In this document: positions 5,097-58,060 of the stretch, in pieces | How the letters are laid out: every line of letters starts with the position of its first letter | Numbering within the stretch: the first letter of the stretch is position 1 | Assembly (NCBI GenBank): GCA_961205875.1 | Contig: OY540816.1 | Span: 9,930,701-9,994,700 of the forward strand | Direction of reading: 5' to 3' | DNA from: Sialis fuliginosa | Lineage: Eukaryota; Arthropoda; Insecta; Megaloptera; Sialidae | DNA: 64,000 bases | Notes under the pieces: generated by a model | The model's database searches: none | What the model saw: the letters and a program-made list of their open reading frames with translations, nothing else | Told to the model about the DNA's origin: nothing | Translations under genes and position numbers: made by a program

Positions 5097-7887
5097 GGAT
5101 ATATAGTACAACTATTTTTTCAAAAATACAAATTAGTATATAAAAACATAATTCTTATAAATTATTCAAATTGCTTTTTCGGTTTGGAACAAAACCACAA
5201 GATATTGGTCAAAACGTCGACGTTGTGCAACGAATAAAAATTATTCAGTATTGTATCAACCCACAAAAATATAATTTTTGAGTTATGAATACAGTTTATT
5301 CGAAATAAAATAAAAAATAAATAAAAATAAAATAAATTCATTAAAAAAAAACCATGGCTATTAAAATTTTATTTAAATTATAAGTTAACAAAAACAGTTT
5401 CTGCAAAAAAAAAAACACTTTGCGGTTTAATTATAAACAAAAACAATATTTTAATTTTAATGGAACATGTATCCAATAATTAACTAACCAAATGTCAAAT
5501 TCCTTTTTTGAATAATAAGAAATTTACCAAATTCACAAATCTTTTTTTCTTTACGTGCATCAAAAACGTCGAGCTTCTTAAAAATTACGATATTATTATA
5601 ATTATAACATATACCTAATTGTAATTTAGTAAATTAAAAATATTATGATTTTTCATACTGGTTTCTTAATCATGTTACGAGAGTAACATTGTTTAATAAC
5701 ATAAGAACAAAATCAAATCTTAACGTTAATTTATAAAGGATTAAAATAAAAATTTGAAAATATACAATTATCTTAAAATAACTATGTACATCTTCTTTTT
5801 CTTTATTTTTGTTGTTGTGAAATCATGTATCTTTAATATTTTTGTTTGTATACTATTTTTTTACGAAGTGTACATTGTAAAACAGTATTATTTAATAATT
5901 TAATTAAATAAAATTATTATTTATACATTATTTTATTTACTAACGTCAATGATATTTCCTTTTCATCGACTATTTCATGATCAAATATTATTAAACAATG
6001 TGTTTGAAACCACAAATAGCCTTGATAGTTTTATTATGAATATTCAGTGAAGTGGAACTCTTATGATCATCGTCAGATTGTTTTAATAAGTTTGGTCATT
6101 GTCACCATGAAATAGCATTCAATATATATTGTAAAGAATAACACCAACAAAAATAATTTATAAAATATATGAAAGTAGCAAAAGAAAAGTGGTAATAAAA
6201 TAATTACGTACCTACTGCTATTTTTTTAACCACTGAAAATTTTTTACCTCGAGCCAAATACTAAATCAAATACTCGGTTCGGGCTGCATGAAAAATTTTT
6301 TTAGTTGTTCATTTTTTTACATTTTTTTTCGATCAAAAATGACCACCGCGGACCGCACAAAGAACCTGAGAGAGCAGTGGATTTCTCATCACTGTTTAGA
6401 AAAAAAAAGATAAATATTGGTACTTTTTCTCTGCATTGAATTGCATAAAATATTATAAATGAATTTAATGATTTTTATTCGAAAAAATATCTCTGTGTTA
6501 TAAATAAATTGCGGTAGCAAAGGGCAAAAAGTAATAAATTATCATTAAAATAAATTAATTACAAAACAAAAACACCTATAAACTAAATAATACCGCCGAA
6601 AAAAATGTAGTTTTAATACGTCAAAATAAATAATATTATAACTAGGAAAATTATAAAAAAAATTTATATTTATAATATATATTTATGTATAATAGAGCGT
6701 TCATTACGTAAGTTTTTGAGGGAAAGGGGGGGGGGGTTGTCAAATTGGGGGAGGGGGGATTGAAAAGTGTTACTTACTTAAGGTTTTTTTAAATTATTAT
6801 TCTGAAATACGTTAATTGATACCAGTTTTTGACGTTGTAATTGCTTTTTCGTATATTAAGTAATTTTTTTAAATGTTCAATGCTCTTTGGTGGTTTTTGA
6901 AAAAAAATGAACCAAAGACATTCACATAATACAAGATTTCATATTTAATATAATACAGTACATACTTTTACCCATAGGTAAATAAAACACGTTCATTTTA
7001 TACGATCCCTTCAGAAGTCATTTTAAAGTATAAATAATCATTCGAAACTGACGCGAATATCGTGAATATTAAACTAGATACCAAATCAACATGGAAAACA
7101 ACTTCAAAAAGCTACAGAAAAAGAAATTAAAATAAACTCTTTTAAATTTATTAATTATTTATTTTCTGTAAAGTACTTCTCTTATAAATAAAGTTATTTG
7201 GTAACTACTTTTCAAGTGATTAAATCGTATCGAGTTTAGATATTGTATATAGTTAGAGGGGGTTAAGGGTAGTAAGAAAAAAATATATTTTAGCTGCGGT
7301 AAAACGGTTTAAGGGGGTGAAATACTTCTATGAGAATGTACAAAATAATCGTATATTTCAATTAACTCTGAAACTAATGAAGATTTAAAACAATTATAGT
7401 ACAAATTTTCTTGATTTTTTATACTCTTTCGAATTTCGAAATCCCACCCACTCCATTATTTATATTATATATATATTTATATTAAAATATTGTACTATAC
7501 TAAAAGTATTTAAATTAAAAAGTGATGTACATTCTTCTGAAAAGTGTTCTACCTACTATGCACATAATAATTTTCTTTGTGGATAATAAAAATGTCTGCA
7601 TTATTGTTACCACAATATCTTGTTGTCTTCGGTATCACACAAATAGTATAGGAATTTCTCTAAAAATTTAAAAAATACACTTTTTCCGTGGAATATTAAA
7701 CTGTAATCCTACAGTTTTTTGCAATAATTAAATAATTTATTAATATTCTTGACATAAAAATAACTAACAATAAGAATATTAATCAATAACATAATATTAT
7801 CAACAAATACCTGATAAAAATATCCTAACGACGTCCATGAAAATGATATATGTATATTAATAAAATTTTCATATAGCTAATAATTGA
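5097..7887. other. AT-rich intronic sequence, no gene seen
   Basis: Long poly-A/T-rich stretch with no protein-like frame. A G-rich patch at about 6715-6765 (runs of up to ten G, then GGGGGAGGGGGG) follows the string CATTACGTAAG, and a second G-rich patch lies at 7257-7272. Similar G-rich patches with CATTACG strings occur at transposon ends, but no matching inverse end was found. Confidence 0.4.
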
Positions 7888-11309: not shown

Positions 11310-11705
11310 GGGCAGGGTTCAACAATTTTTGAAAAGCATAGACGGGATTTTTTACACAAACGAACTGCATATCATAAAATTCGAATTTCAAAAAGGGGGT
11401 GCTCGTATGTCAACAGCACCCTCTTTGATTTTTTTTTAATATCTCCTAAAGGGTTAAAGCACAAACGACAGGATTTCCTGCACAAACGAACTGCAAATAA
11501 AAAAAAATGAATTTCAAAAAGTGGGTGCCAGTGACATGCACTTTTAGATCTGTTCTTGAATTTTTGATTTTTTTTTTAATATCTCCTAAAGGGTTAAAGC
11601 ACAAACGACGAGATTTCCTGCACAAACGAACTACAAATAAAAAAAATTGAATTTCAAAAAGTGGGTGCCAGTGACATGCACTTCTAGATCTGTTCTTGAA
11701 TAGGT
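11310..11705. repeat. Tandem repeat, about 140-bp unit, 2.5-3 copies
   Basis: The unit contains AATATCTCCTAAAGGG, TTAAAGCACAAACGAC, TTTCCTGCACAAACGAACT and TTTCAAAAAGTGGGTGCC. It occurs at about 11430-11570 and again at 11571-11705 with only a few differences. A diverged copy lies at about 11330-11430. The two short frames that run through it on opposite strands simply reflect the duplication. Confidence 0.8.
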
Positions 11706-36974: not shown

Positions 36975-37315
36975 TGGCTTAGACCGAGACGAGACTGGGA
37001 AGAAATCGTCTAAAAATTTGACGAGACGATATTAATTATATTTAAATGTCTTGTCGAAAGTCCCGGTTTTAAAAGATCATCAAATTTATATGGATCATGG
37101 CTTCTGGGTGTAAGCCACGTTGGTTTGGTCGTGTTATCGGCCAACGTTTCGTTATATATTGCTAAAGAAGAAGAGCCCTGAAGATGTCCACTGCAATGTG
37201 TGACGAAACGTTGGCCGATAACACGACCAAACCGACGTGGCTTACACCCAGAAGCCAAGATCCATATCAAGATCACCGCGGAAGCCTCAAGACTTGTATA
37301 TCATCAAATTTAGTA
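36975..37315. mobile_element. Penelope-like terminal fragments in inverted arrangement
   Basis: The left arm at 37100-37155 (CCACGTTGG, TTTGGTCGTGTTATCGGCCA, ACGTTTCGTTA) is the inverse of the right arm at 37202-37255 (GACGAAACGTTGG, CCGATAACACGACCAAAC, CGACGTGGC). On both sides the next sequence includes CTTCTGGG or CCCAGAAGCC. The right arm contains a hammerhead-like core (37178-37209) and ends in CCTCAAGACTTGTAT. The arrangement matches 49080-49345. It is preceded by a GAGACGAGA-rich fragment of the hAT-like family. No reverse transcriptase or endonuclease sequence is present. Confidence 0.6.
37178..37209 (+). ncRNA. Hammerhead-ribozyme-like core A
   Basis: CTGAAGA (37178-37184) and GAAAC (37205-37209) flank a stem in which GTCCAC pairs with GTG, one bulged base, and GAC around the loop TGCAAT. 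CUGANGA and GAAA are the invariant boxes of hammerhead ribozymes, which Penelope-like retroelements carry. There is one extra base between the first box and the stem, and stem I and the cleavage site could not be established, so activity is doubtful. Confidence 0.45.
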
Positions 37316-37486
37316 AAAATTTACTATTTGGTATTAATCTTATTATATAAAAAATAAATTAATTAAAGAATTTTTTTTAGAACCTTCTTATTTTTTTACG
37401 ACACAATATTTTTGAAAATAATTTTTAGAATTCATTTTTCAATTTTGTTAAAAAAATATATAATTTTATAAATTAATGTATTTTAT

Positions 37487-37998
37487 AAGGTACTGGCACC
37501 AGTTATGGCCGCTACAAGAGCAAGGTATACTGTTTTTGTGATTGATAGGCTTTATTTAATCAATTTAATTACCAAAGTCCCCAAATATAGTTTGTTTTCT
37601 TTTATATATTTTACTCCAGTAATGGATAAAATAAAACCAGTAATGAGCACGCAGTGATGGATACTTACTAATGATTACAAAATGATAAGTACTACGACAC
37701 AAAAGATATAAAAGAAAGAATCGTCAAATTTGAAACAATGTAAAGCAGTTGCTATGATAATATAATAATAAATAAATTAATTATACTAATAAAATAATTA
37801 GTTTAAATCTCCACCATTTTGATACCTATTGGCCGATTATCATCAAATCACACTGTAAGACAGTTAAATGTACTTATATAAATTAATATTCAGAAATGGT
37901 AGTAATCAAATATCAACAAATATTTCTAATTCAGTAAATTTAATTTAAAAATAGCAATTATTGGGGTCATATCCAAGACTGGTGCCAGTACTTTATAT
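37487..37998. mobile_element. MITE with GGTACTGGCACCAGT ends, copy 2
   Basis: The left end AAGGTACTGGCACCAGT is mirrored by AAGACTGGTGCCAGTACTTT. The interior follows copy 1 (AGTAATGGA, AATGATAAGTACTACGACAC, AAATATCAACAAATATTTCT). About 510 bp, no coding frame. Confidence 0.8.
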
Positions 37999-38520
37999 TT
38001 CTATATATTGAAAGTTATTATTATTAATTTTTAAAAAAGCTAAACTAGATTGAATATGTGTTTATAACGAAAGTTTATTATATGATGCTATTTGTTTTCT
38101 CTAATAATGTTCACTAATGTGCAATATTATTCAAATAGCATAAGCGTACATATATACATATGTAGTGTATTAAAATATAATGTTATAGTTGATGATGTGT
38201 GCACACTGCACATATGTATAAAATAATCTTAATGTCCCATTAAATGATTTGCCATACAGTAGAATTTTATTCATTACTTTATACATAGTTCAAGTTTATT
38301 TTCTCAGTAATAAATAGTTTAATTATTTATTTATTTAATAGTACTAATAATTTCATAAGGATCTTGTCATTTTATTTTACATAATATAAATATTTTTTAT
38401 GATTCTATGGTTATCTACAGATGTTATACTATATGAACCATCAATATACAAAAAAAATCTTATAAACAGACTTAAATAATACAGTTAAATGGGATAAAAA
38501 AATTGTTTACTGTTGCTGGA
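37999..38520. other. AT-rich intronic sequence, no gene seen
   Basis: No coding-like frame or element boundary was seen. Confidence 0.4.
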
Positions 38521-39127
38521 AGGGTTGCACACGAACAGGAAAAGAGTAAGATAAGTTTCTTCTTATGAAATTTGTAGTCATCTCTAGGTCTCGGTTTCGT
38601 GTAATTCTTTTGTAATAAACAAAGAAATTTAAAGAATTTTAATATCAAATAGTAATTTTTAAATTAATTATATCAACTAACTGTTAAAATCGAGAACTCG
38701 ACGAAACCTTCAAATAAAATTGATATCGTCTTAGACTTGTCTCGTTCAAATTGTATACGGTCTCGTTTCAGGGGTTATTTTAAGAAAATATTTAAATTGA
38801 AAATACTTTCTTTTCTTTGCTCTATACTTACAAACACTTCTTTATATTTTTCTTTTTATTTGCAATTTTTCAACTATACAAATTAGCTTTTACAACAACT
38901 GTAGTTCTTACAAATTATAGTAACTTTTTTTTTGCTCTACACTTACACTTTTTATATTTTTCTTTCTATTTGCAATTTTTCAACTACACCAATTAGCTTT
39001 TACAACGGCAATTTTTTTCATTTTTGGAACTGCAGAAAAAAGCTACAACTACACACTAAAATAACCCCAAATTTAAAATAATCACACCTCGGTCCCACTT
39101 TTCGACTCATTTCGCTGTGCAGCCCTA
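38521..39127. mobile_element. hAT-like element (GGGTTGCACACGAA copy) with nested MITE
   Basis: The left end AGGGTTGCACACGAAC and right end GCTGTGCAGCCCTA belong to the same family as 33685-34859. GTCTCGTT/CGAGACG words are present. An unrelated element at 38769-39068 is inserted near the right end. Flanks GTTGCTGG and GTTTTCTG share only 5 of 8 bases, so the duplication is eroded. Confidence 0.7.
38769..39068. mobile_element. MITE with CAGGGGTTATTTT ends, internally duplicated
   Basis: Ends CAGGGGTTATTTTAAG and AAAATAACCCC match those at 16106-16308 in inverse orientation. The interior segment TGCTCTAYACTTACA, TTTGCAATTTTTCAACTAYA, AATTAGCTTTTACAAC occurs twice in tandem about 120 bp apart. 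The internal duplication explains the 300-bp length against about 200 bp for the other copy. Confidence 0.7.
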
Positions 39128-39194
39128 GTTTTCTGAAAACTACTTGTACTTCACTAATTCAGTAATCAGTAATTAACATTCAAGACTCTTGAAA

Positions 39195-39315
39195 AAGTAA
39201 TACTGAAGATGCCCACTGCAATGTGCGTTGAAACGTTGGAATGTCAGAGTGCATTTTGTTAAGAGGTCTGAAGAATCTTCACCACAGAAACTTCAAAGCT
39301 TGTACAAATGTAATT
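39195..39315 (+). repeat. Penelope-like terminal fragment with hammerhead-like core C
   Basis: CTGAAGA (39203-39209), TGCCCACTGCAATGTGCGTT, then GAAACGTTGG (39230-39239) corresponds to core A at 37178 with several stem changes (CCCAC against GTG). It ends in CAAAGCTTGTACAAATG, related to TCAAGACTTGTAT in the other copies. A second CTGAAGA near 39272 is followed by GAAAC but without a stem. Probably inactive. Confidence 0.5.
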
Positions 39316-41687
39316 CAATTAGAATAAATAAAGCACAATTACTTTTGATTGTAATAAAGTAATTTTTTATATAAAGTTCCTAACTACATACAATTTTTGG
39401 TAAAAACAAAAGTGCTTATAGTTACATTTTTACATAGTTACACTTTTGTTTTGGTAACTCAAATAACATTGATTAAAAAAAAACAGCATTGGAACAAAGC
39501 ATATTTTAAAACTTAGATATGTTTTTTTTATAATTAAATACAAAAAATACGACCAAAAATGAATTATAAATGTTTTCTCAATAATTGAAATAATATCATT
39601 ATTACTATACTACTATTTAACCCTAAGAGTTCTGCGCTCCTGAGCAACAGGTCGGTATACCGACCATTGTAAGCACCGTGGCCCGGGATTATTATTAAAT
39701 TTTGAGATGTTATGGGAAAACAATGTTATTTTATTTTATTATATAATAGAAACATGAATATTATGAAAATATACATAAGAATTAAAAAGATTATCGACAG
39801 AATTCAGCTGATGCAAAATCATCCAAAAGTCTAGATTCAACCTTGAGCTCCTGAGTATACCAGCCAATCGGGTTTAAAGGTTTAAGATCCTAAAATACTG
39901 AGAAATTGGAAATATATGCATATTTATGAAATATAAACCATAAACATTACATATCTCCTTTGTTTTTTGCTTTAATTATTATAAAGCTACAAAACTTATA
40001 AATATTATTATAACTTTATAGTTCCATCAAATCGAATCGATTTTCCATCCTTACCCATTGACAGTAATTTCCCAGAATCCACAACCACGTAAATGTTCAA
40101 ACACGTAGATTGTTTATTGTTACGTAATTAGTGTACATATGACGACGGTTAATTTTACAACAATGTAATAATGCTGTAGCCTTAACCTTACATACTCAAT
40201 CTGTCATTAATAATGAAAGGTGCTTTATTAATACTCCAAAGTGTCAAACAGCCAAGGTGAAGTGTACCATATAAGCATAAGTATGTTCTAGCATAATCGC
40301 AACACGTTGAAAGTAACACTGATCATTAAAACATATTCAAATATAATAGTTAGCTACAATCACAGCTATTTTCTGACATGACGATATCCAGTGGCGTACC
40401 ATAGACTAATGTCCGGTATCATAAAGGAGCTAGCAAATTTGCTAGCTAGCAAGCACTCTCAAATGAGGTATCAAACTTATATGACAGTTCTCTTTAGTAA
40501 AAAAAGAAGTCGTTTTTATTTTGTTCTTTCTACGAAATATTTTTAAAACCGTTTATTAGGATCTCAGTAAAAATAGAATAAGATTGATTTTTGTAACTTT
40601 TAATAATAAAAAAATACAAAAACTGTGTTTTTCATTTATATTCCTCTAAAATAGGTAATGTAGTTACAAAAAATGCAAAAATAAATCAAATATAATAATT
40701 AAATGTATAATTAATGAGGATACTAATTGATGTTCCCCAAATCGACCTCTATGCGTAGATAAAAATATGATTAGCCTTCTAGGGTTAACCAACTATGCTA
40801 TCATTTCATATCATAATTAATCGATTTTTATTTAGAACTAAAAACAATAAATATTTTTCAAGATACTGCCTCTGATTCATAATCAGTATTAGTACGGCAG
40901 AACAGAACCCTTGAGTATAAAATGTTAGTTCCCTGAAATGTTAAGTTTGAATCTAATAGAATTTTTCTCGATTACGAATTTTTTAGAGACTTCTTCGAAA
41001 AGATATGTATCAAAATTTATGACCAAATGTCTTAGTCAAAGACAAAGATTTTCAGATCTGTACAAATTTTGTTATTTGTTGTTGTTACATATTATTCGCT
41101 AAATTACAATCCTAATTAGTTATTAATTAATTAATGTTACAATTTTGTCGAAAACGCACATGTTTGCATGCTAATTGCAAAATCTTAAATAAACATTTTT
41201 GATGTACGCCGCAATCAGTACCTAAGTACTTTATTTGATCTTTCGAGATATTTGTTTTGCAATTAATTAACCGAAACAGTGTTTATTTAACCAATAAACA
41301 ATGTCTATTTTACATCCCAACTACCTCCTTTTTCAGAACATTGATTATGAGGGGATTCAAGAAAATAATTATTTTCCATATTTCAACGAATTCTTACACA
41401 AATATACATTTCACAACTAAAACTAAATTATAAAATTAATAAAACATTTTAGTTAATAAATTGGCGAAATCAATTTTTTCGTTTTATGTACATATGTGAT
41501 TAAATCGTTGAAATATATGAAATAGAACTTTTTTGTCGGGGTCATAAAATTAGGTTCTTTGTCTTTTGCTTAGTACAGTTGCTTTTAATTTTTGGTAGCA
41601 CAACTTTTCGAAAAAAATATAATAAAATCAAATATAATAACTCAACCTAAAACCTTAGGTCTAATAATATAATCTTTGAATAATTTA
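39316..41687. other. AT-rich intronic sequence with minor features
   Basis: No gene seen. TTAACCCTAAGAG near 39618 with CGGTATACCGACC and a loosely inverse TATACCAGCCAATCGGGTTTAA near 39855-39875 could be an eroded piggyBac-type (TTAA-target) MITE. CTAGCAAATTTGCTAGCTAG at 40430-40449 is a short palindrome. CCAGTGGCGTACCATAG at 40390 is a lone hAT-like end. Confidence 0.35.
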
Positions 41688-41695
41688 GATCAGTA

Positions 41696-41865
41696 CAGTG
41701 GCGTAGTAACGGGGGGGAGGTTTCGGGGACAAAACCCCCCCTGAAGTATTATGTGTTTTAAAAAAACGTATGTTTTGAGAAAAAATCAGTTCCAAATACC
41801 TTCAAAAAAATTAACTCATTTAACCCTCCCCCCCCCCACCGAAATGTTTTCTTACTACGCCACTG
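41696..41865. mobile_element. hAT-like MITE with exact 8-bp duplication
   Basis: The left end CAGTGGCGTAGTAAC and right end CTTACTACGCCACTG are inverses, and GATCAGTA is duplicated exactly (41688-41695 and 41866-41873). 170 bp, with G-runs near the left end and C-runs near the right (ACCCTCCCCCCCCCC), which pair with each other. Confidence 0.88.
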
Positions 41866-41873
41866 GATCAGTA

Positions 41874-42760
41874 ATTACAGAACTGTGATAATTAATTATA
41901 AATGGATTCTCAAGTGTCTTAACTTCATGAACTCCTGATATTTTAAAATCTGTAGAAACAGAACTGTAAAATTTCATTTAATCAATAAATAGGTAATATA
42001 CATGTAGGAGCGCCCACATATTTTTATTTTGGAGGATCTATTATAGCAAAGTAATGTAAATCAAAATTTTAAAAATGGGTGTGACTGTGTCAGGATGCAC
42101 AGTCGAGGGAGTGACGTGAATACGTGGTAGTGGGGTTAATAAAAATTAAGATTAATGGATTGATGCATCATTAATTTTTTTGTTCCACAGAAACGTTTGA
42201 ATATTTGAAAAATGGACACAAAATGAAGAAATATATATTATAACTAGTATTATAAAATATAGTTCTTTCTTATGATTTTTACGAACATAAAAACAATTAA
42301 TTAATTAATACGAAATTTACTTTTTATTTTTTTAGTCAAATTAAAAAACTTTAATCAAAAAATTAAAAACGATACTGCGTAGAGAATATATTCTCATATA
42401 CTGTTATTTTTATTTAATTGAATTAATTAATATTTACAAGCGAAATTGTGGAAATACGAAATTTATTTTTTATTTAATTTAAAAAACTTCAATCAAAAAA
42501 TTAAAAACGTTAGATCATAGGGAATATATTCTAATATCCTGTTATTTTTTTTTTAATTCAATTTATTAATATGTTATATTAGGGTTACGCCTATTTTTAG
42601 ACAAGTTGATAAAATGAGCCACATAAAATGTTGCCGCGATCCGCACGTATAGTAGATTATTGAACATTTAAAAAAACTACAATAATATTCATATACATAC
42701 AAATAATGATAAACAGTTATTAAAGAAATATAAAAATTTCTATAAACAAAAATATATATA
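41874..42760. other. AT-rich intronic sequence with a direct duplication
   Basis: A direct duplication is visible: CGAAATTTACTTTTTATTTT with AAAAAACTTTAATCAAAAAATT at 42311-42365, and CGAAATTTATTTTTTATTT with AAAAAACTTCAATCAAAAAATT at 42459-42505. Each is followed by AAAAACG and GAATATATTCT. The unit is about 145-150 bp. No gene seen. Confidence 0.5.
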
Positions 42761-42776
42761 AGTTTCAGAAACACTT

Positions 42777-42807
42777 CTGAAGAAGACTCCGACATGAGAG
42801 TCGAAAC
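42777..42807 (+). ncRNA. Hammerhead-ribozyme-like core D
   Basis: CTGAAGA (42777-42783) and GAAAC (42803-42807) flank a perfect 5-bp stem, GACTC (42785-42789) with GAGTC (42798-42802), and an 8-base loop. It continues CGTCAAGAAATACAATACGA, with GTC and GAC able to pair as a short third stem, as in the minus-strand motif at 45897. This spacing is typical of the hammerhead-like motif in Penelope-like element termini. One extra A precedes the stem. Cleavage site not established. Confidence 0.5.
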
Positions 42808-42867
42808 GTCAAGAAATACAATACGACAACGTAGACAACAGCCCGAAAAGTTAGCTCTTAAAAGATA

Positions 42868-42985
42868 TAAGGTAGTGGCACCAGTCTTGGCAAGGACCTC
42901 AGTAATGGGAAATTTTTAATTAAATGTATTGAATTAGAAATATGTGTTGATATTTGATTACTACCATTTCTACTTTTTCTTATCT
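42868..42985. repeat. Partial copy of the GGTACTGGCACCAGT MITE
   Basis: AAGGTAGTGGCACCAGTCTT, GCAAGGACCTCAGTAATGG, TTGAATTAGAAATATGTG and ATTTGATTACTACCATTTCT match the inverse of the right part of copies at 33785-34316 and 37487-37998. The copy breaks off near 42985. Confidence 0.7.
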
Positions 42986-43231
42986 ACACTATATATCCAA
43001 AGTAACATAAAAGCAACAACAATAGGGTCTTAGACTTTGTATTTTCATGTAATTCCAGAACAAACAGATAAAAAGATAGACAAAACTTTTTAAAATATCA
43101 AATAGACTTAAAAACCCCAAAATAATTTTATTGTACACACAGTTTTTATGTATAATCCCATTTTATTATTCACAAATAACACGATTAGGTTAAAAATGAA
43201 TACCTATGTAAATTGAAATTTTAAAAATTGT

Positions 43232-43783
43232 CATAATAGACATGATGCCAGTAACAAAGTATCACTGAAATTATGATTTAAAATAATGAAATAGGTTAAA
43301 AAGATTCTAAAAAATGTATTTATTTTTATATTAAAAGCGAGATTAATATGATTTTTGTTAAAATAAAAACACAAAATACAGCAATCCGCCATCTTAGATA
43401 AAACACCAGTCAGAGTGGATGACGTCACGGCTAAGTAAACATCATTTTTATTTCATTAATATCTGCACTGTTTATAAATTATTTTGTGGATTTAAATTAT
43501 CAATTTGCTCAGTTGTGTGTTACCAAAACTTAAACCAAGAAACGTTAGCGATGGAACAAGGATTTATTATTGTTGACAAGGAGTCTTAACATAGGCGTGA
43601 CGTCAAAAATGCGCCATGACACCTGCGAGCGTTTTGGCGTCAAATTCAAAATTAGTTTTAAAAGAGTCAATTTTTGTGACTAAACCTTTATTTTCTGCAG
43701 AAATAAGTATTTTTTTGGAAATAGGAGACACGTAAAACCATTATAAAATAGTTTTTAAAAATTAGGCATCATGCCTATTATGT
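43232..43783. mobile_element. Probable MITE with CATAATAGRCATGATGCC ends
   Basis: CATAATAGACATGATGCC on the left is mirrored by GGCATCATGCCTATTATG on the right with one mismatch. The interior is about 510 bp and contains TGACGTCACGGC and GGCGTGACGTCAAAAATG with GCGAGCGTTTTGGCG. No coding frame was trusted. Duplication not determined. Confidence 0.6.
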
Positions 43784-44175
43784 ATTATACTAATACTGTT
43801 TTAAATATTCAATTAAATAATATTATATCATATAAAATCCCTTCAAAGAAGCAGTTAGCTTTCCCTTTCAGATTTAATTCATTAGTTGCAAATTCTACTT
43901 TCAATGTGAATAGAGTAACACATACACTCACACGTTGTGCAATATAATTCAGTTTGATTCAAAACTGTGTACGCACTAGGTATGTATATGTAGAGAACTT
44001 AGCCATGACCCTGCAACACATACATACAATTACTCACATAGATACATATATGTATCTATTCATACTAACATAAATATGTAGGGTTGTTCTGTCTAATGTT
44101 TAGATATTTATCAATAATCATATTTGGCCATAAACATCAAAAAAAGAAAATAGCATGCATATAATTAAATATTCA
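43784..44175. other. AT-rich intronic sequence, no gene seen
   Basis: No coding-like frame. Several ACATAC/ATGTATC microsatellite-like words near 43990-44070. Confidence 0.35.
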
Positions 44176-44400
44176 AGGCACCAGTCTTGGATTGACCCCA
44201 GTAATGGTAATTTTTTAAATTAAATGTACTGAATTAGAAATATTTGCTGATATTTGATTACCTACTACCATTTCTGAATATTAATCTATATACCTACATT
44301 TAACTGTCTTACAGCGTGATTTGATGACAATCGGCCAATAGGTGTCAAAATGGTAGACATTTAAACTAATTTTTAGTATAATTTATTTATTAATTATTAT
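44176..44400. repeat. Partial copy of the GGTACTGGCACCAGT MITE
   Basis: AAGGCACCAGTCTTGGATTG, CCCCAGTAATGGTAA, TATTTGCTGATATTTGATTA, GTCTTACAGCGTGATTTGAT and GACAATCGGCCAATAGGTG match the other copies (inverse orientation relative to 37487-37998). It stops at TATACAGGGTGGGGCAATAG, which begins a different repeat. Confidence 0.7.
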
Positions 44401-44593
44401 ACAGGGTGGGGCAATAGTGTGTGGAAGTTCGATAGCTCGTAGACCATAACAGATAAAAAAAAAATCTAATGCAGATGTAAACTGTGGGTAAATGCGCATA
44501 CATAGAAATTATTTTCAAATATACAGGGTGCTACAAAAAATTGTGGCACGCTTAAGGTATTTTTGTTAAATGGAATGCCCTGATTATTTATGC
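44401..44593. repeat. Repeat fragments with ACAGGGTG starts
   Basis: ACAGGGTGGGGCAATAGTG at 44401 and ACAGGGTGCTACAAAAAATT at 44523 resemble the common insect repeat ends ACAGGGTG(T/G). Both are short fragments without partner ends. Confidence 0.4.
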
Positions 44594-45213
44594 TGTTGAT
44601 CTTTTTGGAACAAATCAGATCTTTGTAGATAAATAAACTTTTGTCTACCTTAAATAACAAATTAATACACATATACTATATAGAAACCTTGTTTATAATT
44701 TAATCAATTTAAAAAAAATTGTACAGAAACGTATTGAATAATATTTGAGGCCCGTGTATTAAATTAATAAATAAATTCACAACTCACCCCCTGTCACAGA
44801 TGAAGGGTTGTAATTGGTCTCATTCGATCTAGCGGGAAAAATACTTCGGAATACTAGGTGAATTTTTCTCTTTTTCGCTACTTATGGTATTCATTATAGA
44901 AAATCGTAAATATCTCAACTCCTGTGTTAGATAGAGGGTTGTTTTGCCCCCCACACCCCTAGTATTTTTCCCGCTGGATCGAATGAGATTAATTACAACC
45001 CTTCATCTGTGACAGGGGGTGAGTTGTGAATTTATTTATTAATTTAATACACGGGCCTCAAATATCATTCAATACGTTTCTGTACAATTTTTTTAAATTG
45101 ATTAAATTATAAACAAGGTTTCTATATAGGTAGTATATGTGTATTTGTTATTTAAGGTAGACAAAAGTTTATTTATTTACAAAGATCTGATTTGTTCCAA
45201 AATGAAGATCAAC
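44594..45213. mobile_element. Large inverted repeat, arms of about 250 bp, loop 117 bp
   Basis: The left arm 44594-44844 (TTGATCTTTTTGGAACAAAT, TAAACTTTTGTCTACC, CCTTGTTTATAATTTAATCA, GAGGCCCGTGTATT, CACCCCCTGTCACAGATGAA, GCGGGAAAAATAC) is repeated inverted at 44962-45213 with only scattered differences. The loop holds a related but diverged GTTAGATAGAGGGTTGT piece. Past the right arm the sequence continues GAGATCACTTCAGATCTG, AAATTTTTTCCG, an end also seen at 36196-36516. The left side lacks it, so the structure is asymmetric or truncated. No coding frame. Confidence 0.85.
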
Positions 45214-45339
45214 CGAGATCACTTCAGATCTGAAATTTTTTCCGAGGATATTTATCTGTAAGAAAATTTTTCATCTCATCTGGAAACTTGAAGAAGGTTA
45301 AATATTAAAAACTTCAAATAACTGGTGACACAGTGCTCC

Positions 45340-45532
45340 CCTACAGTGTGTGTGTGTGTGCGTGCGTGTTTGGTAGGGTGTGTATGGGTGAGAAGGGTGT
45401 ATAGCGACGGCGGTAACGGCGGGCGACGCGAGGGTGGGTGGGCGGTCGGTTCGCAGCACACTGGCAGACGGGCACTAGACGTAGTCGCGCCTTAAAGAAG
45501 AGCTATCAAAACAACCTAAAGCGTGTGGCCCG
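45340..45532 (+). promoter_or_regulatory. GC-rich island ending at a splice donor: candidate alternative promoter and non-coding first exon
   Basis: This CpG-rich stretch (GCGACGGCGGTAACGGCGGG, CGACGCGAGGGTGG, GCGGTCGGTTCGCAGCAC, GACGTAGTCGCGCC) is preceded by a GT microsatellite. It ends GGCCCG|GTGAGC, a good splice donor at 45533. No ATG lies between about 45440 and 45532, as suits an untranslated exon. Composition resembles the island at 2940-3180 before the coding exon on the same strand. Alternative promoters in large introns are common in insect regulatory genes. The island could instead be an enhancer. Minus-strand frame 45276-45461 is compositional. Confidence 0.4.
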
Positions 45533-45890
45533 GTGAGCTACATAGCGCAAACTCTACTCTGTATGCTTTAACACTATTTTTTGTTTCGATATATGATCAC
45601 ATTTGGCGGCATTGATCGAAGGTTTTAAATAAAATATGTAAAAGATTAATGAACTCATATCAAAATTGTTAGGGTTTAAAAATGTTGTATTATACGTTAT
45701 AAACAATAAACGATATCATATTTTATATTTATATTATATTATTATATACTTTTTGATATTTGATAATAATATTATCCCTATCAACGACAGGTAGAGAATT
45801 TTGAGAGAAGATAGTTTTTAAATGTAGACTTTCAAGGTTGTTCAATTGTTCAATTTTTTTTTTAGTTTTATCTCGCGTCGCACTTTTGTT
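45533..45890. other. AT-rich intronic sequence, no gene seen
   Basis: No coding-like frame or element boundary was seen. Confidence 0.35.
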
Positions 45891-45896
45891 GCAATT

Positions 45897-45959
45897 GACG
45901 TTTCGACAAATATCTCATGAAGTGAAAAGATAATGGCTATTAAAATTTGTGATCTTCAG
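45897..45959 (-). ncRNA. Hammerhead-ribozyme-like core E
   Basis: On the minus strand CTGAAGA (from 45959) is followed by a long stem-loop in which ACAAAT (45945-45950) pairs with ATTTGT (45906-45911), then C and GAAACGTC (45904 down to 45897). Downstream CAATTGCAACAAAAGTGCGACG allows CGTC to pair with GACG as a third stem. The arrangement parallels core D at 42777, with a different stem sequence, which argues for conserved structure. Upstream stem and cleavage site not defined. Confidence 0.45.
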
Positions 45960-46254
45960 GTATTGATTTTTTAACACAACTTTGACTAAGAGAAGACATT
46001 GTTTTTTTTATAGAGGAGGGAAACTAATTCTATGTTGTTTTACTAAATTATTCAATACTATAAAACTTCACTAGAAATGCAAATACCCATGGATATACCC
46101 TTGCTTTTATTTCGTGGTAAAAATTAGAAAAAAAATATTCTAATTTTGCTGTACATTCGTACTAGGTATTTTTGGTGAACAAAAAGGGCTGTAAATTAGT
46201 GATATGGACGTCTCAGTGCGTACAGTATAGCCATATTTGGTCACCAAAAAGACC
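45960..46254. other. AT-rich intronic sequence, no gene seen
   Basis: No gene or clear repeat boundary was seen. Confidence 0.3.
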
Positions 46255-46257
46255 TAA

Positions 46258-46355
46258 GAGCCCGTTCACACGGCGTCGTAACGTTTTTTTCCCGTAACTG
46301 CTTTTTCCCGTGCAGTTACGGGAAAAAAACGTTACGACGCCGTGTGAACGGGCTC
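46258..46355. mobile_element. Perfect palindromic PIF/Harbinger-like MITE, 98 bp
   Basis: GAGCCCGTTCACACGGCGTC, GTAACGTTTTTTTCCCGTAA and CTGC form one arm. The other arm is the exact inverse, with a loop TTTTTCCCGT at 46302-46311; arms are about 44 bp with no mismatch. TAA flanks both ends (46255-46257 and 46356-46358), a PIF/Harbinger-type duplication. The GC-rich arms could extrude as a cruciform. A short minus-strand frame crossing it is spurious. Confidence 0.85.
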
Positions 46356-46561
46356 TAATGCGGCTGTTTAATTTTTTTTCGTGAAATGTACCATACATAC
46401 ACGGTGCTGCCTTGTAATGGTGGAGACATTTTATATATTTACTCAGATATATGAAGTAAAAATAAATAGCATTAATTCGATTATGGACTCGTAGGTAAAA
46501 CTATACTTTCTCGTATGTATGGTGCGAATCACAAATAATTTTCTTGCCAAATAACGTAAAT

Positions 46562-47189
46562 TAGAGCTGGGCGCGAGCCGCGAATTTTTCGGGTCACGGC
46601 CGTGACCCGCATGAGCGTGAGCGATTTTCAAATCTTGAATCGTGATCGGACGTGATCGTGAGTCAAATTAAAACAACCGTGTGTGAGTACATTTTTCTCG
46701 TGCGTGAATCCGTGAGTATATTTTGAAGATTTTTTTTAAAACTTATTTGATCTTTTTTTTAATATCTGAACTAATAATGCATAAATATAATGTTTTAAAA
46801 CGAATTTTGACATTAAAAAATAAATGTTATTTTTAGAAGCACTTTCACATGGTCAGTATTGCCAACTATATCAGAACACCAAAAAAAGATTAAAAAATGT
46901 ACTAGAATGCAATTTAGAAGAAAATAATATGAATATAAAATATACACAATAAATAATAATAAAAAATAATTTTCATAATTTCAAAATTTAATTTGCAACA
47001 ATTAGATTAAATCGGGTCACGAGCGTAACCCGTCGTGTGTGATCGGGAGTGAGTAAAAAAATAGAATTCGTGAGCGTGCGTGATCGTGAATACTTTTTTT
47101 GTAACCGCGAGTGAGTGGGCGTGACTAACAATTTTTCTCTCCTGAGCGTGCGTGATCGTGAATAAAAATTACTCACGCGCCCAGCTCTA
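46562..47189. mobile_element. hAT-like element with exact 8-bp duplication and subterminal repeats
   Basis: The left end is TAGAGCTGGGCGCGAG and the right end ACGCGCCCAGCTCTA. ACGTAAAT is duplicated exactly (46554-46561 and 47190-47197). Near both ends are many copies of GTGAGCGTGCGTGATCGTGA or shorter GTGATCGTGA/GCGTGA words and GGGTCACG, which resemble the short subterminal binding sites known from hAT elements. The centre is AT-rich without a transposase frame. The minus-strand frames at 46443-46631 and 46988-47200 are translations of these repeats. Confidence 0.9.
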
Positions 47190-47197
47190 ACGTAAAT

Positions 47198-48609
47198 CAC
47201 GTTATTTTTTTCCGAATTTTTGTTGTTTTAGTTTTTATACCCTTCTTTTATACATTTTTTGTAATTTCTGCTGATACGTTTTTATAGTGATTTTTTATTG
47301 GAGGAGGGGAGTATAAGGGCGCAAATTAAAGTATTCGTATATAATAAGTAAAATTATATTCCAGTATTATTTATACTTATCGTAAACTGGTTGACTAAAG
47401 CGATAGCAATAATTCTAGAATTTGTTGTGAAAACTTACAACAAATATGTATAACTCGGTATTGATTTTCCAGACGTGCAACAAAATATAGTACAGTAGCG
47501 CTACGAATACAGGCTAGTGAAAGTGAAGATTCCAAATTCAAACAGATGACGACAGAAGAAAAAACTAAATATAAGATATATATGATATATGCTATACAAA
47601 ACTTTTTTATAACAGTTAGAGTAAAACAGTGATTCTTTAACTTTGTATTTAATGAAGAACTATTTTTTTATTCATTAAAAAACATTTTAAGAAAAATATA
47701 TTTAATTAAAAAAAAAACTAATCTAAAATAATGGTTTTTAAAATAGTCTTTCCCAAAAAATCAGTTTTTAATATTTGGCTACATTACAACACACAAATTA
47801 AATGAAATCTACAATATATGATTATGATATTACAATAAAAAACATACATTTCCATTAATCACTATTCAACAGTAAATTATTTAATCATAAATTAATTAAT
47901 TAAAATTTTGTTCATGTAGTGTACATACTCATATTTCATATAAAAATATTTTTGAAATAATATAGATTAAAGGTGAAAATTCTATTCATTATGTATTTTA
48001 TTATACATTATATACATTTTTACAAAAATATTTATGTTCTAGCGCACATAAATTCCAATAAAAAGAAAGAAATTATGCAGTACATAAAGCTGTAAATTTT
48101 CAGTGCTTGAAAAAGTGTGTCTTTTTGTACTTTTCTTAAAGCTTAAATCTTAAAGAAATATATTCTTTCAAATAGGTGTATTATTATTAAATAAAATATA
48201 CAATGTAACACATAATTTATTTTATGTTAACTTAAATGTCTGTCATAAAATTTGTAATAATTATTAATAATTATAATTAATATTAATTTTAAACTTGTTA
48301 AAGCGCGTAGGTAGTTTTAAATATTCATTATATTTAATGACGTATGTGTGTAATCATAACTCTAGTATAAAATATTTGTAATTTTTAAAAATAAATTACG
48401 TGGAATTATTTATAAATAAAAATTATTTTCTAATATACATTATTTATTATATGTAAAATATATGTATATACAAGTATGAAATTAATGATTGCTCTATTGA
48501 TATTTTAAATATTTACATCTAAAAATATTTAAAAGACAAATATAAATATTGCCAATTAAATAAATTACAGCAATACTTCTTGCAAGAATCTAATACAGAG
48601 AAATTTCAC
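47198..48609. other. AT-rich intronic sequence, no gene seen
   Basis: No coding-like frame or element boundary. Very AT-rich from about 47640 to 48560. Confidence 0.4.
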
Positions 48610-48614
48610 GACAA

Positions 48615-49045
48615 ACCCATTGGCGGATCCAGGATTTTTATCTGCAGCACATTTGCTCAGTATCAGACTAAAGAAGTTTGCGACCCATGCGGAATTTTAG
48701 CCCCCAAAAATGTCCTTAGTCCGCTACTGTATTTACTAAGCTCGGGGGCCTCGGGGCAAGAGGTGGCTGAGGGCCCCCCAAAATATGCAAAATAAAAAAA
48801 TAAAAATTATAATTATAATTTTAAATTGAATGACCTTTTTTTTTGATCATATAGTTAATATACTGTAGTTAATCTACTCCTTATTACTAAAAAAAAAAAG
48901 ATCATTCAATTGAAAACTAAGCAATAACTGAAAACCTTTTTTTTTTACTCTTAATTTACCCAATTTTTCCTATTTACGTACTTCCTCCAATTTTTACGCT
49001 GTGGGGGGCCTCGGGGCACTGCCCCGGTGGTAGTTACGGCCCTGT
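48615..49045. repeat. Composite of two GC-rich hAT-like fragments
   Basis: The first piece runs from CATTGGCGGATCCAGGATTT to CCTTAGTCCGCTACTG (about 48618-48729). The second has inverted GC-rich parts, CGGGGGCCTCGGGGC with GAGGGCCCCCC near 48750, and GTGGGGGGCCTCGGGGCACT near 49005. It ends GTAGTTACGGCCCTG at about 49044. The short frame 48580-48795 lies over the junction and is not gene-like. Target duplications not recognised. Confidence 0.5.
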
Positions 49046-49079
49046 CCACCTGATCAAATTTTTTTATGAAAGTCTACCA

Positions 49080-49345
49080 AGCAAATGGGTCTGACTTCTG
49101 GATGTAAACCGCGTCGATTTGGTCGTGTTATCGGCCAACGTTTCGTTACGCATTGCAGTGAACATCTTCATGCAGGGCTCTTCTAAAAAGAAAAAGAAAC
49201 TTTTAGAAAAGTCCTGAAGATATCCACTGCAATGTGTGACAAAATGTTGGCCGATAACACGACCAAATCGACGCGACTTATACCCAGAAGCCAAGATAAA
49301 TATCTAGATCACCGCCGAAGCCTCAAGACTTGTGTACCTAGCGAA
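49080..49345. mobile_element. Penelope-like terminal fragments in inverted arrangement, copy 2
   Basis: The left arm (GATTTGGTCGTGTTATCGGC, CAACGTTTCGTTACGCATTG, CAGTGAACATCTTCATGCAG) is the inverse of the right arm (CTGAAGATATCCACTGCAAT, GTGTGACAAAATGTTGG, CCGATAACACGACCAAATCG). It is followed by CCCAGAAGCCAAGAT and CCTCAAGACTTGTGT. It matches 36975-37315 in order and orientation. Right core: CTGAAGA at 49214, but GAAA has become CAAAA. Left core: GAAACG intact, but CTGAAGA is interrupted (CTGCATGAAGA). Both cores should be inactive. Confidence 0.6.
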
Positions 49346-50200
49346 TGTTATGTCATTTTTACTACATTATACATCAATTCAAATATTTTGAGTTAAAAGT
49401 TAAGTTTCAGTTTTTTTAAGTCCTATAATTTTCCAGCTCACTATTTTTATATTTTGGAGAGCCCTTCTCGCTAAGAAACCCAAGAATTTTTTTTCATGAT
49501 GCCCAAAAAAAGTTCGATATCTCGTCGCATCGGGCTACAGACTGAAGCCCTTCACCTTTCCATCTTATGTTCTGTATAATAAAGTAAGTATAGTAAGCAA
49601 TATCTCTATAGTAGTTAAAATTCAAACTCGAGGTTTCAATGGAGTTACACATTTTAATGGTCCTTGAATCGAATACAATCATTATCTCAATTATATCTGT
49701 GTTCGTTTGTCAGTTTGTGAACGTTCTGTAACCAAAACGGCAAAACTTACAAACATGTTTTAAACTATAAAACTTATATATTAGATGTGCATTCACCACC
49801 TATTTTTGAAGATATCAGCAAAGAAGGGGTACTTGTTAGTTTTTTTATTTTATTATTTTTATTTTATAAACGGTTAAAAATATAATTTCTAAAATGTGTT
49901 TCAATTTTTCGGTATAACAAACCGTTTTCAAAATATCTGTATAAATATCTAGTATCATAATGTTTTTAAAATCGTATGGTTCATTATTTTTTATATATTT
50001 CTCGTTTATTATGTAACTATTTTAACGTGAGAACAATGATGCATAAAATATTTTTATTGAGCGCTTCTTTTTTTACTTCTATCATAATGATAATATAACT
50101 AATTTGGTTTAATTGGTATATAATATTCTACAAAATATAAAATTATTTTTTTAATTAATATATTTGTGTATATATGTATGTATATATAGTTTATATATTG
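49346..50200. other. AT-rich intronic sequence, no gene seen
   Basis: No coding-like frame. GTTCGTTTGTCAGTTTGTGAACG at 49701-49723 is a small inverted pair. Confidence 0.35.
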
Positions 50201-56857: not shown

Positions 56858-57335
56858 AAATGTATTGAGTAAAAACTTTCATGGACTGTTTAATAGGATT
56901 TTTTTTCATTAAGATATTAAAATTCTTACAATGGAATCTTTGAAAATAATAATTTTTTATTAGGGTTCCGAGGAAACCCTAAAATGTATTGAGTTAAAAC
57001 TTTCATGGACTGTTTAATAGGATTTTTTTCATTAAGATATTAAAATTTTTACAATGGAATCTTTGAAAATAAGAGTTTTTTTATTAGGGTTCCGAAGAAA
57101 CCCTAAAATGTATTCAGTATAAACTTTCATGGACTGTTTTTTTTTTCATTAAGATATTAAAATTCTTACAATAGAATCTTTGAAAATAAAAGTTTTTTAT
57201 TAGGGTTCCGAAGAAACCCTAAAATGTATTGAGTAAAAACTTTCATGAACTGTTTTTTTTCCATTAAGATATTAAAATTCTTACAATAGAATCTTTGAAA
57301 ATAAGAGTTTTTTTACTAGGGTTCCGAAGAAACCA
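56858..57335. repeat. Tandem array, about 118-bp unit, four copies
   Basis: Units begin AAATGTATTGAGTAAAAACT near 56858, 56981, 57105 and 57221. Each contains CATGGACTGTTT, TTTTCATTAAGATATTAAAA, TTACAATRGAATCTTTGAAA and ends TAGGGTTCCGAAGAAACCCT. Unit lengths are about 123, 124, 116 and 114 bp, differing in poly-T length and a lost TAATAGG. The last unit runs into ACCATATTAATCTCACTTTG, TCATCCGTCCGTC, a string common in insect dispersed repeats, so the array grew from the end of such a repeat. Confidence 0.9.
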
Positions 57336-58060
57336 TATTAATCTCACTTTGTCATCCGTCCGTCTTTTTCAGTCAAAGCAAAATATCTCGTAATAACTAG
57401 AAACTTAAAATTTTTACTGAACATGTAAAATGATGCCCTCTAGTAAAAGATGTACTTTTTTCAAATTAAAAAATGGCGCAAGCAGGGGCTAAAAGTCGTA
57501 TTTTATTTCTCCACCCTCCCCTCTCTAACTCTGTAACTACTGGCTCAAAAAATCTGAAAAAAATTAATATCGAGGTTTTGGTGGGACTACCAACAACAAA
57601 TACTAAAGTCAGCAATATCATTTTAAATTTTGGAATAATAGGAGAGGTGTCATAGAATTTTATATTTTTATTTTCATATCTAGGCATGTGGGGTGTCAAA
57701 ATGTAGATCTCAATTAGTAGAATTTTACCCTATTTTTTTTCTAACTTAAAAATGGCGCCTTTAGGAGGATACAAGCAGTTATTTATTTTGCCCCCCCCCC
57801 CTCTAATTCAATAACTACTGGCTAAAAAAATCTGTAAAAAAATTTGTAACGAGGTTTTGGTGAGATTACCAACGATAAATACTATATCAGTCAACAATAT
57901 CATTTTAAATTTTGGAGAAATAGAAAGGGGCGTTGTAGAATTTTTATTTTCATATGTGGGGTGTAAAAATGTAAATCTCAATTAATAGAATATGACCCTA
58001 TTTTTATATTATTTTTTAACTAAAAAATTCACCTGTGGCTCCAAACATGGCATACACCCG
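57336..58060. repeat. Continuation of the dispersed repeat, internally duplicated
   Basis: A phrase occurs twice about 300 bp apart: AAAAATGGCGC, a short C-rich string, CTCTAACTCTGTAACTACTG/CTCTAATTCAATAACTACTG, GAGGTTTTGGTGGGACTACC/GAGGTTTTGGTGAGATTACC, CAATATCATTTTAAATTTTG, then GTGGGGTGTCAAAATGTAGA/GTGGGGTGTAAAAATGTAAA (about 57473-57700 and 57752-57985). This is a diverged direct duplication. Short frames on both strands (57466-57699) are not gene-like. Confidence 0.7.

What the first reader, a model, noticed from the sequence alone, without database searches (positions are those of the whole stretch)
37178..49250. Hammerhead-like cores with compensating stems at several loci
Five sites share CTGAAGA, a variable stem, then GAAACG or its mutated form: 37178, 39203, 42777, 45959 down to 45897 on minus, and 49214. 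Stems differ but mostly pair: GACTC/GAGTC at 42785, ACAAAT/ATTTGT at 45945/45906, GTCCAC/GTG-U-GAC at 37186. Keeping pairing while the bases change suggests a selected RNA structure. CUGANGA and GAAA are the hammerhead boxes, and Penelope-like retroelements are known to carry hammerheads in their terminal repeats. All copies have one extra base before the stem, so they may be a variant or decayed form.
Basis: partly seen in the sequence, partly recalled or inferred. Interest (0 to 1): 0.75.

Follow-up and report, generated by a model that had tools for sequence, protein, structure and literature searches.

The report
Hammerhead ribozyme scars of Penelope retroelements
The sites look like leftover ends of Penelope-like retrotransposons, a known kind of jumping gene whose RNA carries a small self-cutting ribozyme motif; the find is genuine but belongs to a known class.

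Summary
CTGAWGA-(8-30 nt)-CGAAACGTC has 800 exact matches in the window's 392-Mb genome and the CGAAACGTT form 1,975; reversed-pattern controls gave 1 and 0. Over 13 families, stem II pairs only if one extra base (A or T) follows CTGANGA: 48 of 52 positions, 0 of 5,000 shuffles as good. Eight aligned families show compensatory change in stems I and II. The motif is linked to Penelope-like elements (PLEs): 29 of 30 fetched RT-bearing loci carry it on the coding strand, against 5 of 600 randomised copies.

The five sites are not five independent cases: 37178, 39203 and 49214 are one family, 42777 a second, 45959 a diverged third. They are best read as 5'-truncated PLE insertions. Sites 37178 and 49214 are head-to-head inverted pseudo-LTRs with one 'tail' end and a 13-bp target duplication (11 of 13 identical at 49214). 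Only 37178 and 42777 keep core, stem II and a short stem I. Hammerheads, tails and head-to-head pseudo-LTRs in PLEs are published. New members of a known kind; cleavage untested.

The parts
37076..37088 (.). Left target-site duplication ATCATCAAATTTA
   Evidence: the same 13-mer at 37076 and 37300, nowhere else in the window
37085..37162 (-). Inverted pseudo-LTR partner (short end, no tail; lacks the CTGAAGA part)
   Evidence: (I5), 63, 95: 92% identical to 37193-37270
37173..37218 (+). Hammerhead motif, minimal fold, intact core: stem I GCC/GGC, CTGAAGA, extra T, stem II GTC-CAC/GTG-T-GAC, GAA-ACGU, H17 = U; predicted cut after 37212
   Evidence: E 8.7e-7; pairing (row famA)
37184..37299 (+). 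Start of a reading frame, MSTAMCDETLADNTTKPTWLTPRSQDPYQDHRGSLKT..., ATG overlapping A9 of the core
   Evidence: the PLE link of this frame is inferred
37239..37256 (+). Predicted AC-rich stem-loop GGCTT-ACACCCAG-AAGCC just upstream of the short end
   Evidence: minimum-energy fold; comparison with PAc
37300..37312 (.). Right target-site duplication ATCATCAAATTTA (just after the long, tailed end)
39203..39239 (+). Decayed family-A copy; most of stem II base and stem I lost
   Evidence: 89% over 37 nt; E 0.5
42772..42856 (+). Family-B pseudo-LTR fragment with intact motif: stem I CTT/AAG, extra A, stem II GACTC/GAGTC, GAA-ACGU, H17 = C; predicted cut after 42810
   Evidence: E 3.4e-10; 93% identical to L061
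45858..45964 (-). Decayed relative of family C (L062): loop insert, C-C mismatch next to the core, no stem I
   Evidence: E 0.05 for 45893-45964; 79% over 62 nt
49075..49087 (.). Left target-site duplication TACCAAGCAAATG (11 of 13 identical to the right copy)
49085..49180 (-). Inverted family-A partner with a damaged motif
   Evidence: 49131-49180, E 0.037; 89% over 87 nt
49209..49333 (+). Family-A copy, GAAAC box changed to AAAAT, first stem II pair broken
   Evidence: E 0.11; 90% over 124 nt
49335..49347 (.). Right target-site duplication TACCTAGCGAATG
5180..5224 (+).
   Evidence: E 0.053; 84% over 32 nt

Best explanation
The sites are 5'-truncated copies of the pseudo-LTR (5' UTR plus start of the reading frame) of several families of Penelope-like retrotransposons, and they carry the type I hammerhead ribozyme motif that PLEs encode. 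Proposed cycle: tandem PLE units are transcribed as read-through RNA; the hammerhead folds, alone or as a dimer, and cuts just downstream of GAAA, near or inside the start of the ORF; the GIY-YIG/RT protein cuts target DNA on both strands and starts reverse transcription inside the RNA, some 60-100 nt 3' of the hammerhead. A new copy therefore ends shortly downstream of the hammerhead, so that even very truncated insertions keep the motif; priming from both sides of the break would give head-to-head inverted pseudo-LTRs between a target duplication. Shown here: the motif, its covariation, its linkage to PLE ORFs in the families whose ORF was seen, recurrent 3' ends with variable 5' ends, head-to-head polarity, target duplications. 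Inferred: ribozyme cleavage, dimer action, two-sided priming, and that families A, B and C (whose full-length parents I did not find) are PLEs.
For: 800 and 1,975 genomic matches against 1 and 0 for reversed patterns. Stem II 48 of 52 pairs in one register only; minimal-fold stem I 23 of 24; eight-family alignment 94.6% paired, covariation score 0.811 against 0.163 shuffled. RT and GIY-YIG beside the motif in L030; motif on the RT strand in 29 of 30 loci against 5 of 600 Markov copies; ATGGTCAT start context 122 nt after the same CGAAACGTC motif in L063 and L065. Two recurrent 3' ends about 35 nt apart; shared border repeats of 9 nt or more in 12 of 18 inverted pairs against 6 of 306 mismatched ones; -/+ polarity 16 to 0 for neighbours under 1 kb. 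The architecture agrees with PMC11167929 and PMC3846280.
Against: No Rfam hammerhead match. The fold with a longer stem III passed an automatic scan in 6 of 10 PLE representatives only, and in these AT-rich sequences its stem III (623 of 20,000 shuffles as good) and stem I (960 of 20,000) are not significant alone. The minimum-energy fold of family A pairs ACGUUGG/CCGACGU, a hairpin that leaves no cleavable H17 and competes with the minimal fold, and the minimum-energy fold of the 42777 unit does not show the hammerhead. RT arrays are not strictly head-to-head (25 -/+ but 5 +/-), and 6 of 18 inverted pairs lack an exact duplication of 9 nt (one of these, at 49 kb, has an imperfect one). In the Anolis study catalytic mutants did not affect insertion in vitro.
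Confidence: 0.92

Rival explanations
1. The CGAAACGT box is conserved because it is protein-coding (start of the PLE reading frame), and the RNA structure is incidental.
For: In 37178, 42777, L061 and L062 the box is in frame as GAA-ACG (Glu-Thr) of a short open frame.
Against: In L064 and L066 the box lies in another frame; in L040, L054, L056, L060, L063 and L065 the ATGGTCAT start lies 122-154 nt downstream, so that the motif is 5' UTR; stems covary.
Confidence: 0.02
2. The fragments are animal retrozymes: short non-autonomous tandem repeats bounded by hammerheads that move as small circular RNAs.
For: Short, very numerous non-autonomous copies; a head-to-tail pair 333 bp apart in L065.
Against: Family-A loci show single or head-to-head copies with 3' ends past the motif and target duplications, not head-to-tail units of one length; L065 is followed by a PLE-like start context at one of its two motifs.
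Confidence: 0.04
3. The inverted repeats are ordinary MITEs or other palindromic DNA transposons, and the hammerhead likeness is coincidence.
For: Inverted arms of 75-79 nt at 37085-37270 and 49092-49293 and target duplications.
Against: Arms are of unequal length, break at different inner points and end asymmetrically; unrelated families share the same core with different stems; the core is linked to PLE ORFs.
Confidence: 0.015
4. Chance: CTGAAGA and GAAAC are short and common.
For: CTGAAGA alone is expected 3.7 times in the window, and other places (for example 13487 and 61749) are probably chance.
Against: 800 to 1 and 1,975 to 0 against reversed patterns in the genome; E 3.4e-10 and 8.7e-7 in the window with a model made from other families.
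Confidence: 0.005

Closest known systems
Minimal type I hammerhead ribozymes of Penelope-like elements (Cervera & de la Pena 2014; Lunse, Weinberg & Breaker 2017: not held, known here only through passages of PMC7761336, PMC6466107, PMC6155905)
   Same: Core boxes, type I order, placement in the pseudo-LTR, reduced stem III, tandem copies, palindromic stem III loop in tandem families.
   Different: Always one extra A or T after CTGANGA in the 13 families compared; several tandem families can form a 5-7 bp stem III, whereas the reviews describe PLE motifs as lacking helix III. Whether the primary papers already show this I could not check.
PAc, the Poseidon PLE of Anolis carolinensis (PMC11167929; main-text section read)
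   Same: Start codon in the hammerhead, cut 26 bp after it (29 nt predicted at 37178), two internal RT start sites defining a 30-40 bp tail, AC-rich stem-loop, cutting and extension of both strands.
   Different: Other stem sequences; in several families here the ORF starts 122-154 nt downstream of the motif.
Penelope families of Adineta vaga (PMC3846280; passages)
   Same: Inverted head-to-head pLTR, 31-bp tail on one of the inverted pLTRs, 8-10 bp target duplications.
   Different: Here most family-A copies examined are solo inverted pLTRs without coding sequence; the word hammerhead is absent from that paper according to the search listing.
Chrysanthemum chlorotic mottle viroid hammerhead (De la Pena & Flores 2001; seen only as a reference; the viroid's name is recalled)
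   Same: An extra nucleotide in the conserved core of a natural hammerhead.
   Different: A viroid, not a retrotransposon; exact position of its extra base is recalled, not checked.

Membership tests
Hammerhead ribozyme (type I) | CUGANGA and GAAA boxes in type I order | tested here: met
   in the window fully intact at 37178 and 42777; 49214 has lost GAAA
Hammerhead ribozyme (type I) | Stem II with covariation | tested here: met
   (48 of 52, one register)
Hammerhead ribozyme (type I) | Stem I beside a UH cleavage site | tested here: met
   minimal fold 23 of 24 pairs, helix 1 at 95.8%; three decayed window copies do not meet it, and in the longer-stem-III families it is not significant alone (14 of 15)
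Hammerhead ribozyme (type I) | Stem III | tested here: inconclusive
   only A15.1-U16.1 with a 2-nt loop in the GAAACGTY families; 5-7 bp found by scan in 6 of 10 PLE representatives, 25 of 25 pairs in five families but 623 of 20,000 shuffles as good
Hammerhead ribozyme (type I) | Match to a curated Rfam model | tested here: not met
   no positive control with a known PLE hammerhead was run, so that the models' reach for this type is unknown
Hammerhead ribozyme (type I) | Self-cleavage | not testable with these tools
   needs a bench assay
Penelope-like element | RT plus GIY-YIG endonuclease in linked elements | tested here: met
   L030: RVT_1 4.5e-11, GIY-YIG 1.9e-6; L040: RVT_1 4.3e-10, no Pfam GIY-YIG hit but 45% identity to the L030 region over 117 aa; none in the window
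Penelope-like element | Tandem units making pseudo-LTRs | tested here: met
   places 3.56 kb apart; motif at both ends of units in L040, L044, L047, L049-L051, L054-L057, L060 among others
Penelope-like element | Inverted head-to-head pLTR, one tail, target duplication | tested here: met
   for family A
Penelope-like element | Families A, B and C themselves have a PLE ORF | not tested
   the genome search with the family-A frame did not complete; inferred from structure
Animal retrozyme | Head-to-tail repeats of about 300 bp bounded by canonical type I hammerheads (PMC7229834, passages) | tested here: not met
   20 family-A loci plus two in the window show single or head-to-head copies; one head-to-tail pair 333 bp apart in another family (L065) was not followed

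The most novel reading that the evidence does not exclude
In this genome the PLE hammerhead is a regulated two-state RNA. A constant extra base puts the start codon (A9-U-G) or a loop II start into the ribozyme core, and alternative stem III folds (a minimal 2-nt loop, a 5-7 bp hairpin with an AGCGCT palindrome, or the competing 7-bp hairpin of family A that removes H17) would make translation, cleavage and RT initiation mutually exclusive, with dimerisation across tandem units or binding of the PLE protein as the switch.
Probability: 0.12. Interest if true: 0.6.

Novelty: new member of a known kind. Interest (0 to 1): 0.34.

Why it matters
It offers a large natural data set (about 2,770 exact motif matches, several stem versions, long tandem PLE arrays) for an open question: what the hammerhead does for Penelope-like elements. 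It suggests why isolated hammerhead motifs are scattered through non-coding DNA: they sit a short way upstream of the internal RT start, so that truncated insertions keep them. It also shows that an Rfam search found none of them here.

Tried and rejected
Rejected: chance; coding conservation alone; MITE. The weak miRNA-family hits at 49144-49241 reflect the inverted repeat itself and lie far below gathering scores.

The extended fold of family A (stem III ACGUUGG/CCGACGU with stem I GAGCC/GGCUU) was set aside because it leaves no H17.

Dropped rows. One search uses 13 family representatives: near-identical subfamilies (L035, L038, L039, L053, L056), an insertion variant of the L064 family and the decayed window copies 39203, 45959 and 49214 were left out; further stem versions seen later were not added. 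One search uses one copy per family, chosen by me; for L064 the minus-strand copy was taken because the plus-strand copy has a deletion 3' of the core and pairs worse in stem I. In one search the three-base stem I strands were typed in, with the cleavage position set by hand, for L040 against the automatic scan. One search uses 18 inverted pairs (from 16 of the 20 fetched family-A loci plus two in the window); loci without a clear partner (L012, L021, L024, L025) and a second single copy in L009 were left out; the two halves lie 1.3 kb apart in L016 and about 240 nt apart in L013. One search uses the first 100 of 800 listed places (all on C1) and the 128 scored RT places. The genome totals count overlapping readings of one core twice in places (for example C1:2691459 and 2691469).
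Full report
WHAT IS THERE. CTGAAGA is at all five stated positions. The two-box motif occurs exactly at 37178 and 42777, where 0.03 are expected. The five sites are not independent: 37178, 39203 and 49214 are alike over 37 nt or more (D1 and D4), 42777 is 93% identical over 85 nt to a second family (L061), and 45959 on the minus strand is a diverged relative (79% over 62 nt) of a third (L062). A model built from six other families, with neither the family of 37178 nor that of 42777 in it, finds those two strongly and the rest weakly; it adds an inverted partner at 49131-49180 and a remnant at 5180-5224.

IS IT MORE THAN CHANCE. In the whole genome CTGAWGAN{8,30}CGAAACGTC has 417 forward and 383 reverse matches, against 1 and 0 for the pattern read backwards. 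The CGAAACGTT form has 1,000 and 975 against 0 and 0. The 100 matches listed by each call fall into several stem II versions, among them GACTC/GAGTC, GACC/GGTC, GTCTT/AAGAC, GGcCGA/TCGaCC, GACT/GGTC, GGaCAGTG/CACTGcCC and GTCCAC/GTGtGAC.

RNA STRUCTURE. With one representative of each of 13 families, stem II pairs in 48 of 52 positions if exactly one base is skipped after CTGANGA, and in 23, 19 and 13 of 52 if 0, 2 or 3 are skipped; re-pairing strands between families gave at most 42 in the one-base register. The skipped base is A in 9 and T in 4 families, and the first pair is G-C in 12 and G-U in one, as in the canonical hammerhead (recalled). In eight families the minimal fold GAA-A(CG)U-H followed by stem I pairs in 23 of 24 positions, with 1 of 20,000 shuffles as high. 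The alignment of these eight gives 94.6% paired cells against 63.3% shuffled, a covariation score of 0.811 against 0.163, and at most 40% paired when slid by 1 to 3 columns; the measure 'pairs with a change on both sides' did not stand out (4 against a mean of 3.2, 186 of 500 shuffles as high). The families are probably related, so shuffles overstate significance. Tandem PLE families can also form a longer stem III: an automatic scan found it in 6 of 10 representatives (L033, L035, L036, L038, L054, L060), and 7 of the 10 have the palindrome AGCGCT in its loop region. On its own that stem III is not significant in such AT-rich sequence (25 of 25 pairs, but 623 of 20,000 shuffles as good), nor is stem I of those families (14 of 15, 960 of 20,000). 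Rfam recognises none of these.

LINK TO PENELOPE-LIKE ELEMENTS. A GIY-YIG search of the genome gave two places. One (L029) looks like a SLX1-type nuclease (my reading). The other (L030) has an RT with RVT_1 at E 4.5e-11, a GIY-YIG domain at E 1.9e-6 and, downstream on the same strand, CTGAAGAAGTCTGTAGTATGACGAAACGTA. Its RT finds 128 scored places, many in tandem arrays of about 3.56 kb period with open frames near 900 codons. The C-terminus of one such ORF (L040) is 45% identical to the L030 GIY-YIG region over 117 residues. Of the 30 RT loci fetched, 29 carry the motif on the RT strand, against 5 of 600 Markov copies; the exception, L032, appears to end before that region. The 30 loci fall into about eight families, so that they are not 30 independent cases. 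Where a start context ATGGTCAT follows within 300 nt it lies 122-154 nt after the motif (L040, L054, L056, L060, L063, L065); for one motif each of L054, L056 and L065 and for L031 none was found there. Two negatives: a Pfam scan of the whole 915-aa L040 ORF gave no family at E 0.01, while its C-terminal 502 aa gave RVT_1 at 4.3e-10; and that ORF has no tblastn match in the window.

ANATOMY OF THE WINDOW COPIES. Family-A units have variable 5' ends but two recurrent 3' ends about 35 nt apart. In 16 of 20 fetched loci and both window places a minus copy lies left of a plus copy, head to head. In these 18 pairs, 12 share an exact repeat of at least 9 nt at the outer borders, against 6 of 306 mismatched combinations. 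By my reading of the ends printed, 17 of 18 have one short and one long end (L013 has two long ones). The pair at 37076-37312 has a perfect 13-bp duplication; the pair at 49075-49347 has one with 11 of 13 identical. Head-to-head polarity also holds for other families: 16 -/+, one -/- and no +/- among neighbours under 1 kb in the first 100 places; it is looser for the large RT arrays (25 -/+, 5 +/-, 27 -/-, 22 +/+ under 10 kb). This agrees with published PLE structure: inverted pLTR, a 31-bp tail on one of the inverted pLTRs and 8-10 bp duplications in Adineta (PMC3846280, passages), and two internal RT start sites that define the tail, with both strands cut and extended, in Anolis (PMC11167929, main-text section).

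HOW IT PROBABLY WORKS. By analogy with Anolis PAc, reverse transcription starts internally, in or just after an AC-rich stem-loop; in family A a stem-loop GGCTT/AAGCC is predicted at 37239-37256, and the two recurrent ends lie about 60 and 95 nt after GAAA. Each insertion therefore contains the hammerhead however short it is. In family A the ATG overlaps A9 of the core and the predicted cut is 29 nt into the frame, close to the 26 reported for PAc. What cleavage does in the life cycle is unknown; trimming read-through tandem RNA to unit length, or removing the start codon from RNA destined for insertion, are my guesses. In the Anolis study catalytic mutants inserted normally in vitro and cleavage needed the protein. 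Minimum-energy folding does not favour the hammerhead: family A shows stem II but a competing 7-bp hairpin, and the 42777 unit folds otherwise.

STATE OF THE COPIES (read). 37178 and 42777 keep the core, stem II and a 3-bp stem I. 39203 has lost most of the base of stem II and stem I. 45959 has a mismatch next to the core, a loop insert and no stem I. 49214 has lost the GAAAC box. None can be called active from sequence.

NOVELTY. Hammerheads in PLE pseudo-LTRs, their reduced stem III, dimer action and palindromic loops are described in papers of which I saw passages (PMC7761336, PMC6466107, PMC6155905); the two primary papers are not held. [quoted passage not shown] I therefore file this as new members of a known kind. 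The constant extra base and the longer stem III of some tandem families may be a variant; my paper searches were not aimed at settling that.

Noticed in passing
G000:C10:1-40913 and G000:C3:36752257-36779039 (L067, L068): Large PLE arrays reach the ends of two chromosome-size contigs (RT places from 2150 on C10 and up to 36771949 of 36779039 on C3). The end pieces fetched look like PLE coding sequence, with one TTAGG in L067 and one CCTAA in L068, so PLEs may be subtelomeric here, or assembly stopped in the arrays.
   Followed up: partly
family-A inverted pairs, 18 examined (L009-L028 in part, and the window): 17 of 18 head-to-head insertions have one short and one tailed end, with the tail on either side (my reading): a one-tail-per-insertion rule that could reflect an asymmetric enzyme dimer.
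   Followed up: partly
tandem PLE loci L040, L054, L056, L060, L063, L065, downstream of the motif: TGACC lies 80-102 nt after the motif and the start context ATGGTCAT follows 122-154 nt after it; TGACC and GGTCA could pair around the start codon, perhaps the counterpart of the AC-rich stem-loop of PAc.
   Followed up: no
L065 (G000:C1:29792900-29793600): Two identical hammerhead cores head-to-tail 333 bp apart, the only retrozyme-like spacing seen.
   Followed up: no
window 22484-23050 +: 188-codon stop-to-stop frame that looks like the N-terminal part of a mariner/Tc1-type transposase (my reading, no family search).
   Followed up: no
window 44600-45205 and 46257-46356: Nested inverted repeats (arms 118-137 nt, 91-96% complementary) and a perfect 45-nt inverted repeat with a 10-nt spacer, unrelated to the motif as far as seen.
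   Followed up: no
window 56899-57334, 57514-58005, 11424-11701: Tandem repeats with periods 116/240, 268 and 140 nt.
   Followed up: no
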